DNA from: Verrucomicrobiota bacterium
GTDB lineage: Bacteria > Verrucomicrobiota > Verrucomicrobiia > Verrucomicrobiales > Akkermansiaceae
Length of the DNA: 47,105 nucleotides
Assembly (NCBI GenBank): GCA_004294095.1
Contig: RDZR01000044.1
Span: 1-47,105, forward strand
Direction of reading: 5' to 3'
This document shows, piece by piece, positions 7,004-17,511 of the stretch; the stretch's first letter is position 1, and every line of letters begins with the position of its first letter. The translations under genes and the position numbers were made by a program. The notes under the pieces were generated by a model that worked only from the letters and a program-made list of their open reading frames with translations, had not been told where the DNA came from and made no database searches.

Positions 7004-7031
7004 GTGGAGCGTAGCGGATTCGAACCGCTGA
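7004..7031. repeat. Left attachment site (orphan tRNA-Ala 3' end)
   Basis: A 28-bp perfect copy of 12346-12373 that covers the T-arm and acceptor 3' side of tRNA-Ala. Read on the minus strand it ends with discriminator A and then CCA (7004-7002), so the original chromosomal tRNA-Ala gene encoded CCA. Confidence 0.9.
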
Positions 7032-7050
7032 AAGGATTCCAACCCATTGT

Positions 7051-7060
7051 TTATCAATGA
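7051..7060. repeat. Subterminal inverted repeat, left copy
   Basis: TTATCAATGA here is repeated in exact inverted orientation (TCATTGATAA) at 12328-12337. The copies lie 19 bp inside the left att repeat and 8 bp inside the right one. They are candidates for integrase or excisionase binding. Confidence 0.5.
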
Positions 7061-7112
7061 CTTCCAATGATTTCAAGGGATTTAAAACGGGAAAAACTTG
7101 CGGAAATGGCAT

Positions 7113-7137
7113 AAATAGGACACAGTTTTGCACACAG
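7113..7137. repeat. Arm-type repeat, left copy
   Basis: AAATAGGACACAGTTTTGCACACAG resembles 12280-12304 in direct orientation (same AAATAGG, CACA, TTTT and CACAC blocks). Each copy holds two short CACA-type units. The position on both sides of the element, just inside the att cores, suits integrase arm sites. Confidence 0.45.
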
Positions 7138-7154
7138 TCAGGGGTGCAAGAGAC

Positions 7155-8456
7155 ATGGCCAGCATTTACAAGCGTTCAGAATCGGAAATCTATCAGGCTC
7201 AATTTTATGTTCCCGACGCAGTCACGGGCGATTTGAAGAAGGTGAGGAAGTCCACTGGACACACCAACAAAAAGAAAGCACAGGCATGCGCCGACGAGCT
7301 AGAGCGCACCTCTCAATCCGTGATGCAAGCAGGCAGCGACCGCGCACAGCGTGCAAAGGCTTTGCTAGCCGAGGCAGTGGCAGAAGTAGAGCGAGAGACC
7401 TTCACCGCGCCTACTGCTCGGAAATACATTTCCAAGCTCCTTGCCATAGCCACAGGGGAAGAGATGGAGTCTTACTGCATCGAGACATGGACAGAAGAAT
7501 GGTTGCGCCGCAAAGCCCGTGATTCCTCTCAGTCCACCATCACAAGATACCGCGCACACACTCAGGCCTTTCGCGCATGGCTAGGCGATAGCCGCCGCAA
7601 CAAGCCCTTGGAAAGCATCACGTCTCAAGATGCTCGTAGATGGCGAGAGTCTCTCCAAGATGCCGGACGCACTGGCAAGACCGTTCTCGCATACTGCAAG
7701 GACGTTGGCGCGGTCTATCGTGCCGCCATTCGTGAAGGGCTTGTCTCCTTCAATCCATTTTCAGCACTCGAAGCCATCGATACGAGCGATAGCCTAGAAA
7801 GAAAGCCGTTCAATGAAGAGGAAGTTTTCGCCCTTCTCAAAGCCGCCCCCACTGAGGAATGGCGAGGCCTGATTCTCGTGGCAGCATTCACAGGACTAAG
7901 GCTTGGAGATTCCGCCCGTTTGTCATGGGAAGCCGTCGATCTCAACGCCAAGCGAATCACGCTCATCCCATCGAAGACCAAAAAGAAAAAGCGTGAAGTC
8001 CGCATTCCCATTCATCCAGAGCTTTTCACCTTTCTAGAGAGCGTCACAGTTTATTCAGACAAACCAAATGCCCCCGTTTTTGAAACACTCTCAGCCACAA
8101 AGATAGGCGCACGCGCGGGACTCTCTCAGACTTTCAACAAGATCATGAGCAATGCCGGAGTGGAGCGCGGCAAGCCATCACGGGACATCCATGAGGAGTC
8201 TGTAAGTGACTCGAAAGAGAAGAAAGCTAGTGTCGGCCGTGTCACCTATGAGCGGGGATTCCACAGCTTGCGCCATACTTTTACCAGTTGGCTACGCAAT
8301 GCCGGTGTGAGCGAGGAAGACAGAATGGCACTCACAGGCCACACCACGCGCGAAAGCCATCAAATTTACAGCCATGGCGACGAAAAGACCTCCAAGGCAG
8401 CAATAGCGAAACTACCTTCACTATCCAACGCATCAAAGGAAGAGGACAAAGCTTAA
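7155..8456 (+). CDS. int: Tyrosine recombinase / integrase
   Basis: About 433 residues from MASIYKRSESEIYQ (an ATG nine codons upstream is also open). An N-terminal arm-binding and SAM-like core-binding region is followed by the catalytic domain. The residues are in place: Arg249 in FTGLRLGD, the lysine in PSKTKKKK, His370-xx-Arg373 in HSLRHTF, His396 in LTGHTT and Tyr405 in HQIYSHGD. The enzyme should insert and excise the element at the tRNA-Ala 3' end. It sits next to the left att site, as is usual for tRNA-targeting integrases. The insertion between the Lys region and HxxR (about residues 335-365, charged, with DSKEKKAS) is longer than in minimal family members. Confidence 0.95.
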   Translation: MASIYKRSESEIYQAQFYVPDAVTGDLKKVRKSTGHTNKKKAQACADELERTSQSVMQAGSDRAQRAKALLAEAVAEVERETFTAPTARKYISKLLAIATGEEMESYCIETWTEEWLRRKARDSSQSTITRYRAHTQAFRAWLGDSRRNKPLESITSQDARRWRESLQDAGRTGKTVLAYCKDVGAVYRAAIREGLVSFNPFSALEAIDTSDSLERKPFNEEEVFALLKAAPTEEWRGLILVAAFTGLRLGDSARLSWEAVDLNAKRITLIPSKTKKKKREVRIPIHPELFTFLESVTVYSDKPNAPVFETLSATKIGARAGLSQTFNKIMSNAGVERGKPSRDIHEESVSDSKEKKASVGRVTYERGFHSLRHTFTSWLRNAGVSEEDRMALTGHTTRESHQIYSHGDEKTSKAAIAKLPSLSNASKEEDKA

Positions 8457-8468
8457 AACCGAAAAATA

Positions 8469-9155
8469 ATGTTTTATTTTAGCCCTAAGCCTAAAGAAAG
8501 TTCGGGATTTCTAATGGGAGGAATCACATATCCAGAAGGATTTGAAAATGGAGGAAAGCGATTGATTGCCGAATGTCCAGAGTTCTCTCTTTGGGAAAAA
8601 TATGATGCTCTAGGGGAGGAAATACTGGAGATCTCAGACAGTATAAAAAACATCCTCACAAAAATATCACGCGGTATCAATGACGCTGATGATTTCGACG
8701 AGAGAATTAAACTCTCCACAGCGTTGTCACATCTCGCTGGCCACGCTCAAACTCTTCCCTCAGCAAAATTAAGTTTGGAACAATTCACAAGGCTTGACCC
8801 ATGGAGCTACGGAAATGCTCGTCTTTCTGGCGAGTTAGCGGAAACTTTAGGCAAACAAATTCTTGCCGTGATCTCTTCAACCGACCCAAAACAAAAAGCA
8901 GAGGAATGCGTTGGTAAATTTAGAAATGCATTAGACATGCTTATTCGTGAAAATTCGGCGCAATATGTTTTCGCCACAGAACATCTTTTAATTAGAGTAG
9001 CTATGTCTCAATTTTTTTCTTCTCGAATTCGGCCAAGTAAATCGAGTGTTAGAGCTGGTGTGGAGAGATTAGGAGTCAGTTATCGCGGTAAAAATGCCAA
9101 CGCCACATGGAAGGATAAATTCATGAAAGCTGGCTTAGGTGACTTGCCCTACTGA
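8469..9155 (+). CDS. Unknown protein, element cargo
   Basis: A 228-residue soluble protein with no motif I recognise. It is acidic in the middle, with mostly helical-looking sequence, and ends with a conserved-looking tail (SVRAGVERLGVSYRGKNAN, then ATWKDKFMKAGLGDLPY). Its base composition is more AT-rich than the replication genes behind it, and a hairpin at 9165-9191 separates it from them, so it may be an independent transcription unit. In small satellites the gene between integrase and replication module is often accessory cargo (defence, immunity or regulation), but nothing in the sequence proves that here. A second possible start is the ATG at 8514. Confidence 0.6.
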   Translation: MFYFSPKPKESSGFLMGGITYPEGFENGGKRLIAECPEFSLWEKYDALGEEILEISDSIKNILTKISRGINDADDFDERIKLSTALSHLAGHAQTLPSAKLSLEQFTRLDPWSYGNARLSGELAETLGKQILAVISSTDPKQKAEECVGKFRNALDMLIRENSAQYVFATEHLLIRVAMSQFFSSRIRPSKSSVRAGVERLGVSYRGKNANATWKDKFMKAGLGDLPY

Positions 9156-9164
9156 TAGGCTCTT

Positions 9165-9191
9165 CCCCTGACTTTAGGAATTAGTCAGGGG
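9165..9191. terminator. Hairpin without T-tract
   Basis: CCCCTGACT and AGTCAGGGG form a perfect nine-base-pair stem around a nine-base loop, directly behind the cargo gene. No T-run follows on either strand, so it may be a transcript-end stabiliser, a factor-dependent terminator or a replication/regulatory site rather than a classical terminator. Confidence 0.4.
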
Positions 9192-9221
9192 ACTGAATAA
9201 TCGCACGGCAAGTTACTTGCC

Positions 9222-9512
9222 ATGCCAGTAAAAACTGCAAAAACAGAACAAGAATGGGCGCGGGAGAAACAAGTCACCGCGCAGTTTGGCCTGAGCCACA
9301 TGATCCTCTTCAATCTGAGGAAGGAGGGGAAGATTCGCTCCCTATCGCTACGCGGCGAGCAGAAGCGATACGGGGCGAGGCTCTTCCATCTTCCAAGCAT
9401 TCGGGAATATCTTGCCAAACAAGAAGACCTCGAAAAGCAACAAGCAAAGGACGATCGCCTTGTTGAAAAACTTCGCAGAGAAAACTTCGAGGGGAAAGGG
9501 GCGAAGCAATGA
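9222..9512 (+). CDS. Small HTH DNA-binding protein (excisionase-like)
   Basis: A 96-residue protein. The segment EKQVTAQFGLSHMILFNL, continuing with RKEGKIRSLSLRGEQKRYGA, reads as a helix-turn-helix followed by a wing and then LFHLPSIREYLAKQ, the arrangement of AlpA/MerR-like excisionases and element regulators. The C-terminal third is highly charged and probably coiled. In P4-type satellites an AlpA-like protein controls integrase and excision; a similar task, or control of the replication operon it opens, is likely. The stop overlaps the next gene by four bases. Confidence 0.6.
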   Translation: MPVKTAKTEQEWAREKQVTAQFGLSHMILFNLRKEGKIRSLSLRGEQKRYGARLFHLPSIREYLAKQEDLEKQQAKDDRLVEKLRRENFEGKGAKQ

Positions 9513-9769
9513 GCAAGCACTTCAAGGAAAGGCAAAGCCAGCGCATGGAGCATCTCATTCAGCAGGAAAGAGCAGAGGCACGGCTCGAATGCGAAAGGCT
9601 TATTATCAAGCACCAAGGAAGAGAAGTATTTGAAGCCTTCCTCCACACAGAACAACCCGAATACAACGATCAGACAGGGCAAGAGATACTCGATAACATT
9701 CCAGAGACCATTCTCGAAAAGCTTGTTGCCGGTCTAACATCTAACGCTTTTGGGGAGGTGCGCGATTGA
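9509..9769 (+). CDS. Small protein of the replication operon
   Basis: 86 residues, strongly charged (MSKHFKERQSQRMEHLIQQE at the start) and predicted helical, with no family I can name. It overlaps the HTH gene before it (ATGA) and the primase gene after it (TTGA), so it is translated as part of the replication operon. It could be a helper of primase or helicase; this is inference from position only. Confidence 0.55.
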   Translation: MSKHFKERQSQRMEHLIQQERAEARLECERLIIKHQGREVFEAFLHTEQPEYNDQTGQEILDNIPETILEKLVAGLTSNAFGEVRD

Positions 9770-10743
9770 AAAAGCTTAGCAATTCTAACACAAAGCAAAG
9801 GGTTGATCTATTCAAGCAGGCAAGAGAACGCCTCAGCATTCCCGACGCATGGGCAATGCTAGGCTTACAGGGCGAGCCAAAAGCATCATGCCGAAGCCCT
9901 TTCCGTGAAGAGCGCAGCCCGTCATTCACCATCTATGACAATGGCACGAGGTGGAAAGACCATGGCGAGCAAATAGGCGGGGACGTTGTCGAGTTCATAA
10001 AGCACGGCCTAGGCAGCGATCACAAAGCAGTGAGGGAATGGCTACAAGAACGCCTTGGCTACACTGAAGCCCCACCATCTAGCCGCAAGGATCCTACCTC
10101 AACAAAGGCCATTCAATACCCATCAGCCTTCGCAGAAAGCACCGAGGCGCGATTGGCAGCAATGGCCGAGGCAAAGGAATTACAGATAGAGACAGTCAAC
10201 TTTCTTAGTCATCATGCAATGCTCCGTTTTCTAACAATTAGGGGCGCGGAGTGTTACGTTGTCACCGATGGACAAAACAAGAACGCCGAGATTCGCAGGC
10301 TCGATGCACAGCCGTTTTTCAATGGCAAGAAAGCCTATCCATTGACCGGCGTGGACAAGTCTTGGCTCATTGGTGCCGATTACCTCAGCGAGCAACCAGA
10401 AGCCAACGTCTTGCTTGTGGAAGGCGCAACGGACTTCCTAACAGCATGGGACATAGCCACAGCCTACGCCCATCACAAAGGCGGCAAAAAAGCATCATGG
10501 GTGCCGCTCGCCTTACTTGGTGCCTCATGCAAGGCCATTCACGCAGAATGTTTAAAAATCCTACAAGGCCGGCATGTCCGCCTAGTTCCAGATGGTGATG
10601 ATGCCGGTGATAAGATGCGAGAGCATTGGACAGCCTGCCTCGCAGCCAACGGAAGCAGCGTTGATCACGTCATCATTCCCCGAGGCAAAGACCTCACCGA
10701 CATCAAAAACCACATTCAACCCCATGACCTCTTTTCATCATGA
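9766..10743 (+). CDS. Toprim-domain primase with degenerate CHC2 finger
   Basis: 325 residues starting at TTG (9766), nine bases behind the strong ribosome binding site GGGGAGGTG. The N-terminal part has the outline of a CHC2 zinc finger domain (SCRSPFREERSPSFTIYDNG, later WKDHGEQIGGDVVEFIKH), but the usual His and the later Cys pair are missing. The Toprim domain has Glu219 in LLVEGATDF and the DxD pair Asp276/Asp278 in VPDGDDAGD. Primases of this type lay down RNA primers on the element's origin. The gene is coupled to the helicase downstream (10740). Loss of the finger residues suggests altered template recognition or a protein that no longer binds zinc. Confidence 0.85.
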   Translation: MKKLSNSNTKQRVDLFKQARERLSIPDAWAMLGLQGEPKASCRSPFREERSPSFTIYDNGTRWKDHGEQIGGDVVEFIKHGLGSDHKAVREWLQERLGYTEAPPSSRKDPTSTKAIQYPSAFAESTEARLAAMAEAKELQIETVNFLSHHAMLRFLTIRGAECYVVTDGQNKNAEIRRLDAQPFFNGKKAYPLTGVDKSWLIGADYLSEQPEANVLLVEGATDFLTAWDIATAYAHHKGGKKASWVPLALLGASCKAIHAECLKILQGRHVRLVPDGDDAGDKMREHWTACLAANGSSVDHVIIPRGKDLTDIKNHIQPHDLFSS

Positions 10744-12155
10744 ACTCTCCCATTTCCATTTCCTCGAAGACTCTACCCACACAGGAGACAAAACAAATTT
10801 CCCCCAACTCGAAAACATACTCCACCTCTCCACCTAACACTGAGAAGACTTGCTTTGATCCGAATCAGATTTTTTACGCCTCAGAAACTGGAAGCTACCT
10901 TGTGGAAACAGGGACACATTACAGAACCTATGGGAGAAAAAGCCCCGTCATTGCTGGAATCAAGAGACACCTACGCGCCGCCGGAGCTTCTGAGAATGAT
11001 TTAAAAGACCTCACTGGCGAACAGCTTGAGAACATCGAACTCGACCGCGCTTGTGATTGGACAGGCGGGCTTGCGGGATACCGCAGAGGAATCATGATTC
11101 ACGAAGGGCGGAAATTCCTTATCACCAGTGAACCCGACATGCTGGAAGTAAAAGACATTCCATGGCCAATGCTTCAGAGCATTTTCTCTCAAGCCTTCCC
11201 CGCAGCCGATGCACTCAACGTCTTCAAGGCATGGCTTCAAGGCGGAGTGAATGCCATACGCACCCAGACCCACCAGCCCGCGCCCATGCTAGTCCTTGCG
11301 GGTGATGCTAACGCCGGAAAATCACTATTGGCTCACATCACGAAAACAATTTTCGGAGGCCGATCATCAAACCCAATGACCTCTTGGACAGGCGGGATAG
11401 TATGGAATGACAACTTGGTAGCCTCTGAACTTCTATTGATTGACGACAGCGTCAGCAGCACCGATCCGAGAGCAAGGAAGACTTTCGGCTCTAACTTCAA
11501 AGAAGCCATCTATGCGGGGAATGTTTCGATCCATAAACGCCTGAAGTCATCACTCGATCTAAGACCAGTCTGGCGCGTCATGGTATGCTGTAACGAAACA
11601 CCGGAAAACCTCTCAGTGATTCCACCATTAGAAGAAGGCATTGAAGATAAGATCATGCTCTTGCAGGTGAGTAAGATTCAAACCCCCATGCCAGCCTCAA
11701 CACCAGAGGAGAAAACCGCCTTTGCCGACGCTATCCGCAAGGAACTGTCAGGCTTCTTGCATTACCTCAAAGGATTCACCATTCCAGAACATCTCAGAGA
11801 TACCCGCTCAGGCGTTACCGCATGGAAAGATCGAGCATTGCTCAATGCCGTCACTCAAATCTCACCAGAAAAGCAGCTAGAAAACCTCCTAGCCCTCGCC
11901 ATCAGCAAAGGATTTTTCAACATCGAAAAAGGAGCAAACCGTTGGATGTCCGCCGCCGAAGTCCAAAGCATTCTGGTAGATCGAAGTTCCCCCACATCGT
12001 CACAAGCTCAAACATTACTGAACTACCATGCCACTTGCGGGCGTGGCCTCACATACCTAGCAAAGCACGACAGCCCCTTTGTGACTAATACCCGCACACG
12101 AAACGGAACAGCTCATTACCTCATCACCCGCCCGCTAGGTGGAGAGGTGGAGTGA
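10740..12155 (+). CDS. SF3/P4-like replicative helicase
   Basis: 471 residues. After a low-complexity Ser/Thr/Pro N-terminus comes an AAA+-type core: Walker A GDANAGKS at residues 188-195, Walker B LLLIDD ending at Asp235-Asp236, and the sensor region RVMVCCNETPEN around residue 285. This is the motif set of phage/plasmid P4-alpha-like helicases, which unwind the element's origin and work with a primase. The primase here is a separate, overlapping gene rather than fused as in P4 alpha. The C-terminal part (about 380-471) resembles a winged-helix-rich region and may bind origin DNA. This is the last gene of the element. Confidence 0.85.
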   Translation: MNSPISISSKTLPTQETKQISPNSKTYSTSPPNTEKTCFDPNQIFYASETGSYLVETGTHYRTYGRKSPVIAGIKRHLRAAGASENDLKDLTGEQLENIELDRACDWTGGLAGYRRGIMIHEGRKFLITSEPDMLEVKDIPWPMLQSIFSQAFPAADALNVFKAWLQGGVNAIRTQTHQPAPMLVLAGDANAGKSLLAHITKTIFGGRSSNPMTSWTGGIVWNDNLVASELLLIDDSVSSTDPRARKTFGSNFKEAIYAGNVSIHKRLKSSLDLRPVWRVMVCCNETPENLSVIPPLEEGIEDKIMLLQVSKIQTPMPASTPEEKTAFADAIRKELSGFLHYLKGFTIPEHLRDTRSGVTAWKDRALLNAVTQISPEKQLENLLALAISKGFFNIEKGANRWMSAAEVQSILVDRSSPTSSQAQTLLNYHATCGRGLTYLAKHDSPFVTNTRTRNGTAHYLITRPLGGEVE

Positions 12156-12190
12156 GTTTGGCGCTTGGTGAAAATAGTTAGATGTTAGAC

Positions 12191-12222
12191 AGACTTAAAA
12201 AAATGATCAAAAGTCTCTTTTT
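12191..12222 (+). terminator. Possible terminator of the element operon
   Basis: AGACTT and AAGTCT form a six-base-pair stem with a long A-rich loop, followed by CTTTTTAT. It is weak but well placed, 36 bases after the helicase stop. Confidence 0.35.
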
Positions 12223-12279
12223 ATGGCCCCCATAAACTCAATGACCTGACTTTGAAGTTGATCAACCGAGGGAAATTTC

Positions 12280-12304
12280 AAATAGGCCACATTTTAGGAC
12301 ACAC
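12280..12304. repeat. Arm-type repeat, right copy
   Basis: A direct, imperfect copy of 7113-7137 (AAATAGGCCACATTTTAGGA at its start). See the left copy for interpretation. Confidence 0.45.
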
Positions 12305-12327
12305 TTGGAACCCACTAAAACCCTAAA

Positions 12328-12337
12328 TCATTGATAA
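12328..12337. repeat. Subterminal inverted repeat, right copy
   Basis: TCATTGATAA, the exact reverse complement of 7051-7060, close to the right att repeat. Confidence 0.5.
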
Positions 12338-12345
12338 TGAATGAA

Positions 12346-12373
12346 GTGGAGCGTAGCGGATTCGAACCGCTGA
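12346..12373. repeat. Right attachment site inside tRNA-Ala
   Basis: A 28-bp perfect copy of 7004-7031. It lies inside tRNA-Ala and, after integration, supplies the 3' part of the working gene. It lacks an encoded CCA: the bases after the discriminator read CTT. Confidence 0.9.
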
Positions 12374-12419
12374 CCCCTTGCATGCCATGCAAGTGCTCTA
12401 CCAACTGAGCTAACGCCCC
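12347..12419 (-). tRNA. tRNA-Ala (anticodon GGC), integration target
   Basis: The reverse strand folds as a complete tRNA: GGGGCGT pairs with ACGCTCC (one G-U pair), the D-arm is GCTC..GAGC, the anticodon stem CTTGC/GCAAG closes a loop with anticodon GGC, and the T-arm contains GTTCGAATC. The discriminator is A (12347). CCA is not encoded, unlike tRNA-Gly in this window and unlike the orphan 3' end at 7002-7031, so the present 3' end comes from the inserted element. Confidence 0.95.
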
Positions 12420-16455: not shown

Positions 16456-17511
16456 CTAGGCTGGTTGTTGTTGAGAAATGCAATGCAGCGTGCCGCCTTC
16501 CTCAACAAGATCCAAGCAATCAATCCCGACAATTTCGCGCCCGGGAAACAACTCACGCAAGATATCCAACGCGCGTTGATCATTCTTCGTTTGGCGGAAC
16601 GTCGGCACCAGCAGCCCGTCGTTGACGATGAGGAAATTGACGTATGAAGCTGGCAACATAGGCAATCGCCAACCAGCCACTTCACAAGCCTGTGGGCAAT
16701 GAATTTCTAACACATTTTTGATTTGTGAAAAATTCAAAAGCCGTGAAAAATTATCTGTTAGAATGCGATGGTTCGGAGATTGGCGGTCTTTTTCGACACA
16801 AGCGACCACTGAACTTTCATCGATAAATCGTGTAAGATCATCAATATGGCCGTCGGTATCATCGCCTTCGATGCCGCGTTCTAACCAAAGAATTTCCTCC
16901 ACGCCAAGGCCTTGCTTGAGCTTGTCTTCGATCTGCTCGCGCGAGAGCGATGGATTGCGATTTGGGTTCAGCAGAACTGCCTCGGTGGTGAGCAGTAAGC
17001 CACGGCCATTCACTTCAATGGCGCCGCCTTCTAAAATCATGCCTCCCTCAAAAAGCCGCATGTTCAGGGCGTTGGCGATCTTGCGTGGAATCGCATCATC
17101 GAGATCCCAAGGTGGGAATTTACCGCCCCATGCATTAAAATCCCAATCACTAATGGCGATTTCTCCGCTGTTTGCGTGCTTCAAAAATATCGGCCCATGA
17201 TCGCGGCACCACACATCATTGTGCGGGTGATCGAAGCACTCGATGCGTTCCGGAACCGCTTTCTGCATTCCACAGTGGCGAAGAATTTCTGCATGTTCGT
17301 TGCCGGGTGCATTGATCCGCACGGTCTCGAATCTGGAAATGGCCGCTGCAATTTCGGCAAATTTTTTCCAAATGATTTCCTGTTTCGTGCCGCCCCAGTG
17401 ACGAGGATCATTCACTGGCCATGACAGCCAAACGGCCGCTTGGGGCGACCATTCTGCCGGCATGGAAAATCCTGACTGAGCTGGGATGAGCGATGAGGGT
17501 AAATCTAACAT
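16456..17511 (-). CDS. aguA: Agmatine deiminase
   Basis: About 351 residues from MLDLPSSLIPAQSGFSMPAEW. The open frame extends 39 codons further, but that part is histidine-rich sequence that overlaps the permease in another frame. The protein belongs to the porphyromonas-type peptidyl-arginine deiminase family and should convert agmatine to N-carbamoylputrescine and ammonia. Motifs: WLSWPVNDPRHWGG, HNDVWCRDHGPIFL, ILEGGAIEVNGRGLLLTTE, NPNRNPSLSREQIE, GDDTDGHIDD and the catalytic EEGGTLHCISQQ near the C-terminus. The ATG lies inside the last codons of the ABC permease (7-base overlap), so it is translated with the importer. No N-carbamoylputrescine amidase (aguB) is next to it. Confidence 0.93.
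   Translation of the reverse strand: MLDLPSSLIPAQSGFSMPAEWSPQAAVWLSWPVNDPRHWGGTKQEIIWKKFAEIAAAISRFETVRINAPGNEHAEILRHCGMQKAVPERIECFDHPHNDVWCRDHGPIFLKHANSGEIAISDWDFNAWGGKFPPWDLDDAIPRKIANALNMRLFEGGMILEGGAIEVNGRGLLLTTEAVLLNPNRNPSLSREQIEDKLKQGLGVEEILWLERGIEGDDTDGHIDDLTRFIDESSVVACVEKDRQSPNHRILTDNFSRLLNFSQIKNVLEIHCPQACEVAGWRLPMLPASYVNFLIVNDGLLVPTFRQTKNDQRALDILRELFPGREIVGIDCLDLVEEGGTLHCISQQQPA

What the first reader, a model, noticed from the sequence alone, without database searches (positions are those of the whole stretch)
7004..12373. Compact 5.4-kb satellite-like element with its own replication module
Exact 28-bp att repeats, subterminal inverted repeats and paired arm-type repeats define the element to the base. 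It carries integrase, regulator, primase and helicase but no packaging, capsid or conjugation gene that I recognise. It may be a phage satellite or other hitchhiker of Verrucomicrobiota, a phylum where few are described to my knowledge.
Basis: partly seen in the sequence, partly recalled or inferred. Interest (0 to 1): 0.7.

Follow-up and report, generated by a model that had tools for sequence, protein, structure and literature searches.

The report
Minimalist phage-satellite-like island in Verrucomicrobiota
A 5.4-kb DNA element sits in an alanine tRNA gene of an Akkermansiaceae-type bacterium and carries little more than genes to insert, excise and copy itself; relatives at other tRNA genes often add a phage-packaging gene, so it is probably a tiny parasite of phages, in a phylum where I found no published example.

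Summary
In detail: an exact 28-bp repeat (7004-7031, 12346-12373) bounds a 5370-bp element in the 3' end of an intact tRNA-Ala(GGC). Gene order: tyrosine integrase, unknown gene, excisionase-like regulator (weak match), small gene, DnaG-type primase, P4/DUF5906-type helicase; no terminase, capsid, tail or relaxase gene recognised. It belongs to a family: helicase relatives occur in 49 of 386 genomes of the order; ten elements, window included (5.4-11.4 kb), are bounded by tRNA-gene repeats and all have integrase and helicase; six of ten carry an orphan terminase small subunit, as some PICIs do. A same-genus species has a 7.2-kb element in the same tRNA-Ala with the same core and a 76%-identical integrase but another replication module. 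The gene order matches Vibrio PICMIs, but integration at fis, their hallmark, is absent. Best reading: a minimalist phage satellite (0.65); excision, replication and packaging are inferred. Against: helicase homologues occur in full phages, the window element has no packaging gene, three terminase models found no helper in its genome, and no strict empty site was available.

The parts
7004..7031 (.). left attachment repeat, 28 bp (displaced copy of the tRNA-Ala 3' end)
   Evidence: exact direct repeat
12346..12373 (.). right attachment repeat, 28 bp, inside the intact tRNA-Ala(GGC)
12346..12419 (-). tRNA-Ala(GGC), target gene, intact
   Evidence: ARAGORN; Rfam tRNA
7038..7063 (.). left subterminal inverted repeat arm (weak)
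   Evidence: I2, 77% complementary
12325..12350 (.). right subterminal inverted repeat arm (weak; overlaps att by 5 bp)
   Evidence: I2
7112..7136 (+). left arm-type integrase site (candidate)
   Evidence: 20 of 25 identical to 12279-12303; 1 of 300 shuffles
12279..12303 (+). right arm-type integrase site (candidate)
7155..8456 (+). tyrosine integrase (ATG 7155; TTG 7128 is the longer reading)
   Evidence: PF00589 1.2e-17, phrog_1 9e-50; 76% identical to the L200 integrase, dN 0.17
8469..9155 (+). ORF2, unknown gene 12 nt after int (place of PICMI iolg/icg)
   Evidence: no significant family hit; one homologue, in G247, after an integrase
9164..9192 (.). inverted repeat ahead of the ORF3-ORF6 operon (terminator- or operator-like)
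   Evidence: fold of 9150-9228, z -4.95
9207..9221 (.). palindrome directly before the ORF3 start: candidate operator
9222..9512 (+). ORF3, excisionase/AlpA-like regulator (weak)
   Evidence: PF06806 DUF1233 0.0011, below cut-off; L200 homologue 65% identical over 78 codons
9509..9769 (+). ORF4, small unknown gene, 4-nt overlaps on both sides
9766..10743 (+). ORF5, DnaG-type primase (zinc ribbon + Toprim), TTG start
   Evidence: PF13155 2e-6, PF01807 7e-5 (just below cut-off), phrog_47 2e-9
10740..12155 (+). ORF6, P4/DUF5906-type helicase
   Evidence: PF19263 1.8e-4 (below cut-off), TIGR01613 0.0025; family profile hits PDB chains named 'Primase' 6k9e/6k9c at 1.6e-7
12156..12345 (.). 190-bp right end with no recognised gene: no cargo, no terminase small subunit

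Best explanation
It is an integrative mobile element and most likely a minimalist phage satellite. SHOWN from sequence: a bounded 5370-bp element in tRNA-Ala with integrase, primase, helicase and a weakly matched regulator. INFERRED: when a helper phage infects, the ORF3 regulator is switched on (candidate operators at 9164-9221); integrase and ORF3, perhaps with ORF2, excise the circle between the two 28-bp repeats and restore the tRNA gene; primase and helicase replicate it; the helper's terminase and capsid package it. With no terminase small subunit and no capsid gene, packaging would use a helper-like cos/pac site or concatemers in full-size heads, as in Vibrio PICMIs; for this last step there is no direct evidence here.
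For: Boundaries and tRNA. Ten elements with tRNA-repeat boundaries, all with int and helicase. Orphan TerS in six of ten: E2, E4, E5, E7, E8, E9, among them E2, whose helicase is 70% identical. Defence genes beside the helicase in two relatives whose ends I could not find: type I RM in L054, PNP/Avs4-like in L058. Same site and core, 76% integrase, swapped replication module in G309/L200. dN far below dS for int and helicase (dS saturated in most pairs). Helicase tree: the window lies in a clade of nine chromosomal loci without any of the 15 viral rows (89/97). Gene order as in PICMI (PMC10803314, passages and section 10).
Against: The window element has no TerS; no TerS was found in E3, E6 and E10 (ORFs scanned), nor at PF03592 level anywhere in G309. 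Helicase relatives of 29-47% identity sit in viral contigs, at least one a tailed phage, so descent from a prophage is possible. No match to three terminase families in its own genome. The expected circular junction was not found in viral contigs, and the helicase scans there found no relative closer than 47% (the integrase was not scanned there). The regulator match is sub-threshold. The window's primase is only 27% identical to that of E2, so the modules do not travel as one unit. No strict empty site.
Confidence: 0.65

Rival explanations
1. Remnant of a prophage: integrase and replication module kept, structural genes lost.
For: Helicase homologues in IMG/VR contigs, L072 with TerS, TerL and portal; ten further viral loci have a TerL like that of L072; viral and chromosomal helicases interleave in the tree (4 changes).
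Against: Ten compact, repeat-bounded elements at different tRNA genes with no TerL or portal family among the hits shown; both att copies exact and no broken gene seen in the window element; low dN/dS; no viral row in the window's clade. In two viral loci read, primase and helicase form one frame of 745 and 807 aa, here they are split; but fused frames also occur in chromosomal relatives (E4 773, E8 737 aa; L058 783 aa), so this argument is weak.
Confidence: 0.12
2. Autonomous integrative plasmid-like element, moved by transformation, generalised transduction or a conjugative helper acting on an oriT, not a phage parasite.
For: No TerS, capsid or cos found in the window element; sister element L200 has a DnaB-like helicase instead (phrog_243 2e-6); cargo of E3 and L200 is a Sel1-repeat/trypsin-like protein, not phage-related.
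Against: Orphan TerS in six of ten relatives; no relaxase hit among the six genes.
Confidence: 0.18
3. Chance repeats around ordinary chromosomal genes.
For: Only the inverted repeat is near chance (33 of 300 shuffles at 25 nt).
Against: 28-bp exact repeat in a tRNA 3' end beside an integrase; the same core around a different element in G309.
Confidence: 0.01

Closest known systems
PICMI (phage-inducible chromosomal minimalist islands, Vibrionaceae; PMC10803314)
   Same: Size (5.4 vs 6.1 kb for PICMI115); order int - overlapping or contiguous unknown gene - regulator - often a single gene - primase whose model includes DUF5906; no capsid-remodelling gene.
   Different: Site is tRNA-Ala, not fis; other phylum; primase and helicase are two genes; regulator matches DUF1233 weakly and no AlpA model; six of ten bounded relatives carry TerS; packaging untested.
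PICI of Gram-negative bacteria (e.g. EcCICFT073, PmCI172; PMC6092414)
   Same: Integrase, excisionase/AlpA-like regulator, primase-replication module, no structural genes; some PICIs carry terS, others a cos site; relatives here carry TerS.
   Different: Window element has neither TerS nor an identified cos; helper induction and small capsids not shown.
P4-like satellites
   Same: P4-type primase C-terminal (helicase) domain, weak (TIGR01613).
   Different: No hit to P4-specific genes in six proteins; P4's own gene set is recalled and was not searched for separately.
Tailed phages in IMG/VR with the same helicase (e.g. L072)
   Same: L072 helicase 42% identical to the window's and 45% to that of E5; TerS of six viral loci 48-50% identical to that of E9.
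   Different: L072 carries TerL and portal; the tree places the window's clade apart.

Membership tests
Phage satellite (general) | bounded integrative element without its own structural genes | tested here: met
Phage satellite (general) | mobilised in particles of a helper phage | not testable with these tools
   circular junction not found in viral contigs, which does not exclude it
PICMI | integration next to fis (hallmark per PMC10803314) | tested here: not met
   integrated in tRNA-Ala(GGC)
PICMI | integrase, AlpA regulator and primase in one element | tested here: inconclusive
   int and primase met; regulator only DUF1233 at 0.0011, no AlpA model hit
PICMI | concatemer packaging in full-size capsids, dependence on a virulent phage | not testable with these tools
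   needs a helper phage
PICI | int, excision function, primase/replication module, no structural or lytic genes | tested here: inconclusive
   int, replication module and absence of structural hits met; excision function rests on a sub-threshold match; divergent master repressor not identified
PICI | terS, or helper cos/pac site | tested here: inconclusive
   no TerS in the window element; no helper sequence for a cos/pac comparison; TerS in six of ten relatives
PICI | induction by and interference with a helper, small capsids | not testable with these tools
   experiment needed
cfPICI | own capsid genes (recalled; not read up) | tested here: not met
   no meaningful capsid hit in six proteins
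Integrative and mobilizable element | relaxase | tested here: not met
   no relaxase model among hits up to E 1; oriT not tested
Prophage | terminase large subunit, portal, capsid | tested here: not met

The most novel reading that the evidence does not exclude
A separate lineage of minimalist, TerS-less phage satellites in Akkermansiaceae/Verrucomicrobiales, convergent in gene order with Vibrio PICMIs, swapping replication modules and targeting many tRNA genes, mobilised by infecting (perhaps virulent) phages as concatemers in full-size heads.
Probability: 0.35. Interest if true: 0.75.

Novelty: new variant of a known kind. Interest (0 to 1): 0.55.

Why it matters
If true, it extends minimalist phage satellites to a phylum for which my literature searches found none (open-access papers, listings only). 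PMC10803314 did find 68 of 135 PICMI-like candidates outside Vibrionaceae (section 10), whose hosts I did not see, so some could be related. The family offers a comparable set: same site with another replication module; near-identical helicase with TerS (E2) or with none seen (L052, cut by a contig end); several tRNA sites. That makes testable whether TerS is a dispensable add-on to an int-regulator-primase core, and may show one route by which defence genes move in Verrucomicrobiota.

Tried and rejected
Single-protein scans with the helicase in viral contigs, phages and plasmids found nothing; an alignment was needed. phrog_2, which I took from memory for a terminase large subunit, matched 13 of 14 control genomes and was dropped (it gave 0 matches in the own genome and matches in 28 of 38). 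AlphaFold on ORF2 alone gave pLDDT 42, so no fold search was made. The genes after int in eight loci were compared pairwise; only ORF2 and L211 are related. Promoter and terminator scans were at or below chance (1 found against 4.5, 6 against 7.2); Rfam found only the tRNA. PADLOC's RTasDnaG-like hit of ORF5 (6.6e-17) covers residues 19-149 of 325, the primase part, and no reverse transcriptase was among the six genes' hits, so a DRT defence system was rejected. The left flank as empty-site probe failed: the LysM gene is found in 63 of 73 genus genomes, but ORFs of the left flank match none of the tRNA-Ala loci compared. Tail/Hoc-like hits in E9 lie on an LRR/Ig protein. The 3.2-kb Roseibacillus contig shows no terminal overlap. 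A fourth phrog_57 member was not identified (one search tested ten candidates; one search found no further homologue), so I count only E5, E7 and E9 for that family. In some searches two wrong-strand or neighbouring ORFs of E8 were tested and gave no clear TerS; the right ORF was found.
Full report
OBSERVATION. The 28-bp repeat is exact (7004-7031 and 12346-12373) and the right copy is the 3' end of an intact tRNA-Ala(GGC). The integrase starts 124 (TTG) or 151 (ATG) bp inside the left end and is read inward; after the helicase come 190 bp with no recognised gene. Arm-type direct repeats (20 of 25, 1 of 300 shuffles; 16 of 20, 3 of 300) and a weaker inverted repeat (16 of 20, 3 of 300; 17 of 25, 33 of 300) fit integrase binding sites. 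GC is 0.493 against 0.517 for the rest of the window, so composition says little.

GENES. Six genes lie on one strand. ORF3 to ORF6 are coupled by three 4-nt overlaps, so they look like one operon; two inverted repeats precede ORF3 (9164-9192 and 9207-9221; fold of 9150-9228 z -4.95, none of 200 shuffles as stable; the second occurs once in the window with up to 2 mismatches, 22 of 100 shuffles have at least one). They are a plausible switch. Integrase PF00589 1.2e-17; ORF3 DUF1233 0.0011, below cut-off; ORF5 zinc ribbon plus Toprim primase; ORF6 DUF5906 / P4 primase C-terminal domain, both sub-threshold, with a family-profile match to PDB chains called 'Primase' at 1.6e-7. ORF2 and ORF4 have no convincing family. 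ORF2 is found in 2 of 260 family genomes, one of them the window's own; the other copy, in G247, also follows an integrase.

FAMILY. The helicase finds relatives in 49 of 386 genomes of the order, own genome included. I held 41 loci of them (window included) and examined 36 for repeats (L015, L032, L035, L036 and L067, all short contigs, were left out). Nine of 36 have a repeat of at least 15 nt that overlaps an annotated tRNA and flanks the helicase; a tenth (L044) has a 40-nt repeat of tRNA-Met sequence with no whole tRNA annotated. The other 26 showed no such repeat; many are cut by contig ends, and some (L031, L066) have long repeats that are not tRNA. The ten (E1 window Ala; E2 Lys; E3 Cys; E4 SeC; E5 Asn; E6 and E10 Arg; E7, E8 and E9 Met) span 5.4-11.4 kb. 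In eight the repeat lies at the tRNA 3' end; in E7 and E9 it is the 5' half. All ten have an integrase at one end and the helicase. The window's primase is not the one of its closest helicase relative (27% identical to E2's; tblastn finds that primase in other, more distant members), so modules are shuffled. Of eight named genome-collection hits seven are Akkermansiaceae, Rubritalea, Roseibacillus or Verrucomicrobiales and one is labelled Robiginitomaculum, perhaps a binning error.

PACKAGING GENE IN RELATIVES. Terminase small subunits: E2 PF03592 1.1e-8 and phrog_51 1e-18; E4 PF03592 1.4e-9 and phrog_5334 8e-25; E8 PF03592 1.8e-5 and phrog_5334 6e-10, on the strand opposite to the helicase; E5 phrog_57 1.3e-7 and E9 3.8e-5, the weakest, though the E9 protein is 48-50% identical to genes of six viral loci, in L072 the one just before TerL; E7 1.1e-9. 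That is six of ten. E1, E3, E6 and E10 gave none. A PHROGs scan of 71 non-core ORFs of E2-E10 (70 of the 76 of at least 60 aa picked, plus the E8 TerS) matched 36 families, of which 25 were shown; these include no terminase large subunit, portal or major head protein. Tail and Hoc-like matches belong to an LRR/Ig protein of E9.

CARGO. Downstream of the helicase L054 has hsdR-hsdM-hsdS; L058 has, on the other strand, an 1839-aa PNP/nSTAND protein with Avs4-like matches. I found no ends for these two, so that the genes belong to the element is likely but not proven. E3 and the L200 element carry a Sel1-repeat/trypsin-like protein.

SAME SITE, OTHER MODULE. In G309 (L200) a 7.2-kb element lies between the same 28-bp cores in the same tRNA-Ala (9796-9823, 16969-16996). 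Its integrase is 76% identical and its ORF3 homologue 65%, its ends resemble the window's (18 and 19 of 20), but ORF2 is another gene and primase plus helicase are replaced by a DnaB-like helicase (phrog_243 2e-6). Its own left and right arms resemble each other little (11 of 21). The Nudix gene beside the tRNA is found in 63 of 73 genus genomes; of 30 loci read, 20 have tRNA-Ala(GGC) next to it, and 8 of these 20 have the TAGGnCACA motif (up to 1 mismatch) within 120 nt of the tRNA 3' end, against 3 of 405 background blocks. So this tRNA looks like a hotspot. In the other tRNA-Ala regions fetched (L201-L210, L212-L215) no integrase of this family was found, some being short or cut.

PHAGE KINSHIP. 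With an alignment, 60 IMG/VR loci encode helicase relatives (29-47%). L072 has TerS, TerL (GpA, 3e-62) and portal (3e-46) after its helicase; ten further viral loci have a TerL like L072's (L073-L078, L089, L090, L092, L094). The other 51 of the 62 viral loci examined gave no hit, but that search used one TerL and one portal as queries. In a 34-row tree the window lies in a clade of nine chromosomal loci (89/97) with none of the 15 viral rows; viral rows need four changes overall. So the helicase is shared between phages and small elements, as expected for satellites and equally for descendants of phages.

LITERATURE. PMC10803314 (passages and section 10 read): PICMI115 is 6.1 kb with int, an int-overlapping gene (iolg; contiguous, icg, in some), alpA, often a single gene, then prim (DUF3987 and DUF5906 in the search model); 135 PICMI-like candidates in complete genomes, 67 of them in Vibrionaceae; no complete PICMI outside Vibrio; fis is the hallmark. 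The window has this order, with ORF2 12 nt after int; in E6, E7, E10 and the L200 element the gene called after int overlaps it by 4 nt (coordinates; start codons chosen by script). PMC6092414 (passages read): PICIs carry int, xis, primase/replication genes and no structural genes; some have terS, others cos. Searches for satellites together with Verrucomicrobi* gave no such report (no paper; 60, 65, 87: listings and starts of abstracts only; open-access papers). Recalled, not read: virion-encapsidated elements of seawater (VEIMEs).

HELPER. The own genome (97% complete, 113 contigs) has no match to PF03592, PF05876 or PF03354. If it is a satellite, its helper would be an infecting phage, or a prophage with another terminase type or in the missing part.

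MECHANISM, shown and inferred. Shown: integration into tRNA-Ala with a duplicated 28-bp core; a complete-looking replication module; constraint on int and helicase (dN 0.17-0.22, dS 1.5-2.0 and saturated; E2 against L052 helicase 0.061 and 0.665). Inferred: helper-triggered excision, replication and packaging. I put 0.65 on a phage satellite, 0.18 on a plasmid-like or otherwise mobilised element, 0.12 on a prophage remnant.

Noticed in passing
L200:9796-16996 (G309): Element with a closely related integrase and the same core but a swapped replication module and a Sel1-trypsin-like cargo gene, in the same tRNA-Ala.
   Followed up: yes
L145, L146, L151, L155, L159, L165, L166 (tRNA-Ala 3' flanks): Arm-type motif next to the tRNA suggests elements at this tRNA in seven other same-genus genomes; only L165/L200 was bounded.
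   Followed up: partly
L056:5821-5913 (G317): Element E4 is integrated at a selenocysteine tRNA gene; it carries TerS and a GHKL-ATPase gene.
   Followed up: partly
L054:10719-17032: Type I restriction genes hsdR, hsdM, hsdS directly after a family helicase.
   Followed up: partly
L058:1960-7479: 1839-aa protein with PNP and nSTAND domains, Avs4-like, beside a family member.
   Followed up: partly
L044:10601-12964: 788-aa protein with TOP6A/Spo11 Toprim and GHKL ATPase domains inside element E9; no PADLOC hit.
   Followed up: partly
L136 (NZ_JAENIO010000079.1): Helicase relative in a named strain, Roseibacillus ishigakijimensis KCTC 12986: a possible laboratory model.
   Followed up: no
L129 (IMGVR_UViG_3300010370_000149): A 31-kb IMG/VR contig with an E7-type helicase (69% identical) and the E7 gene next to TerS; phage or host contig with a satellite, not decided.
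   Followed up: no
window 9164-9221: Two inverted repeats between ORF2 and the regulator gene, possible operators.
   Followed up: partly
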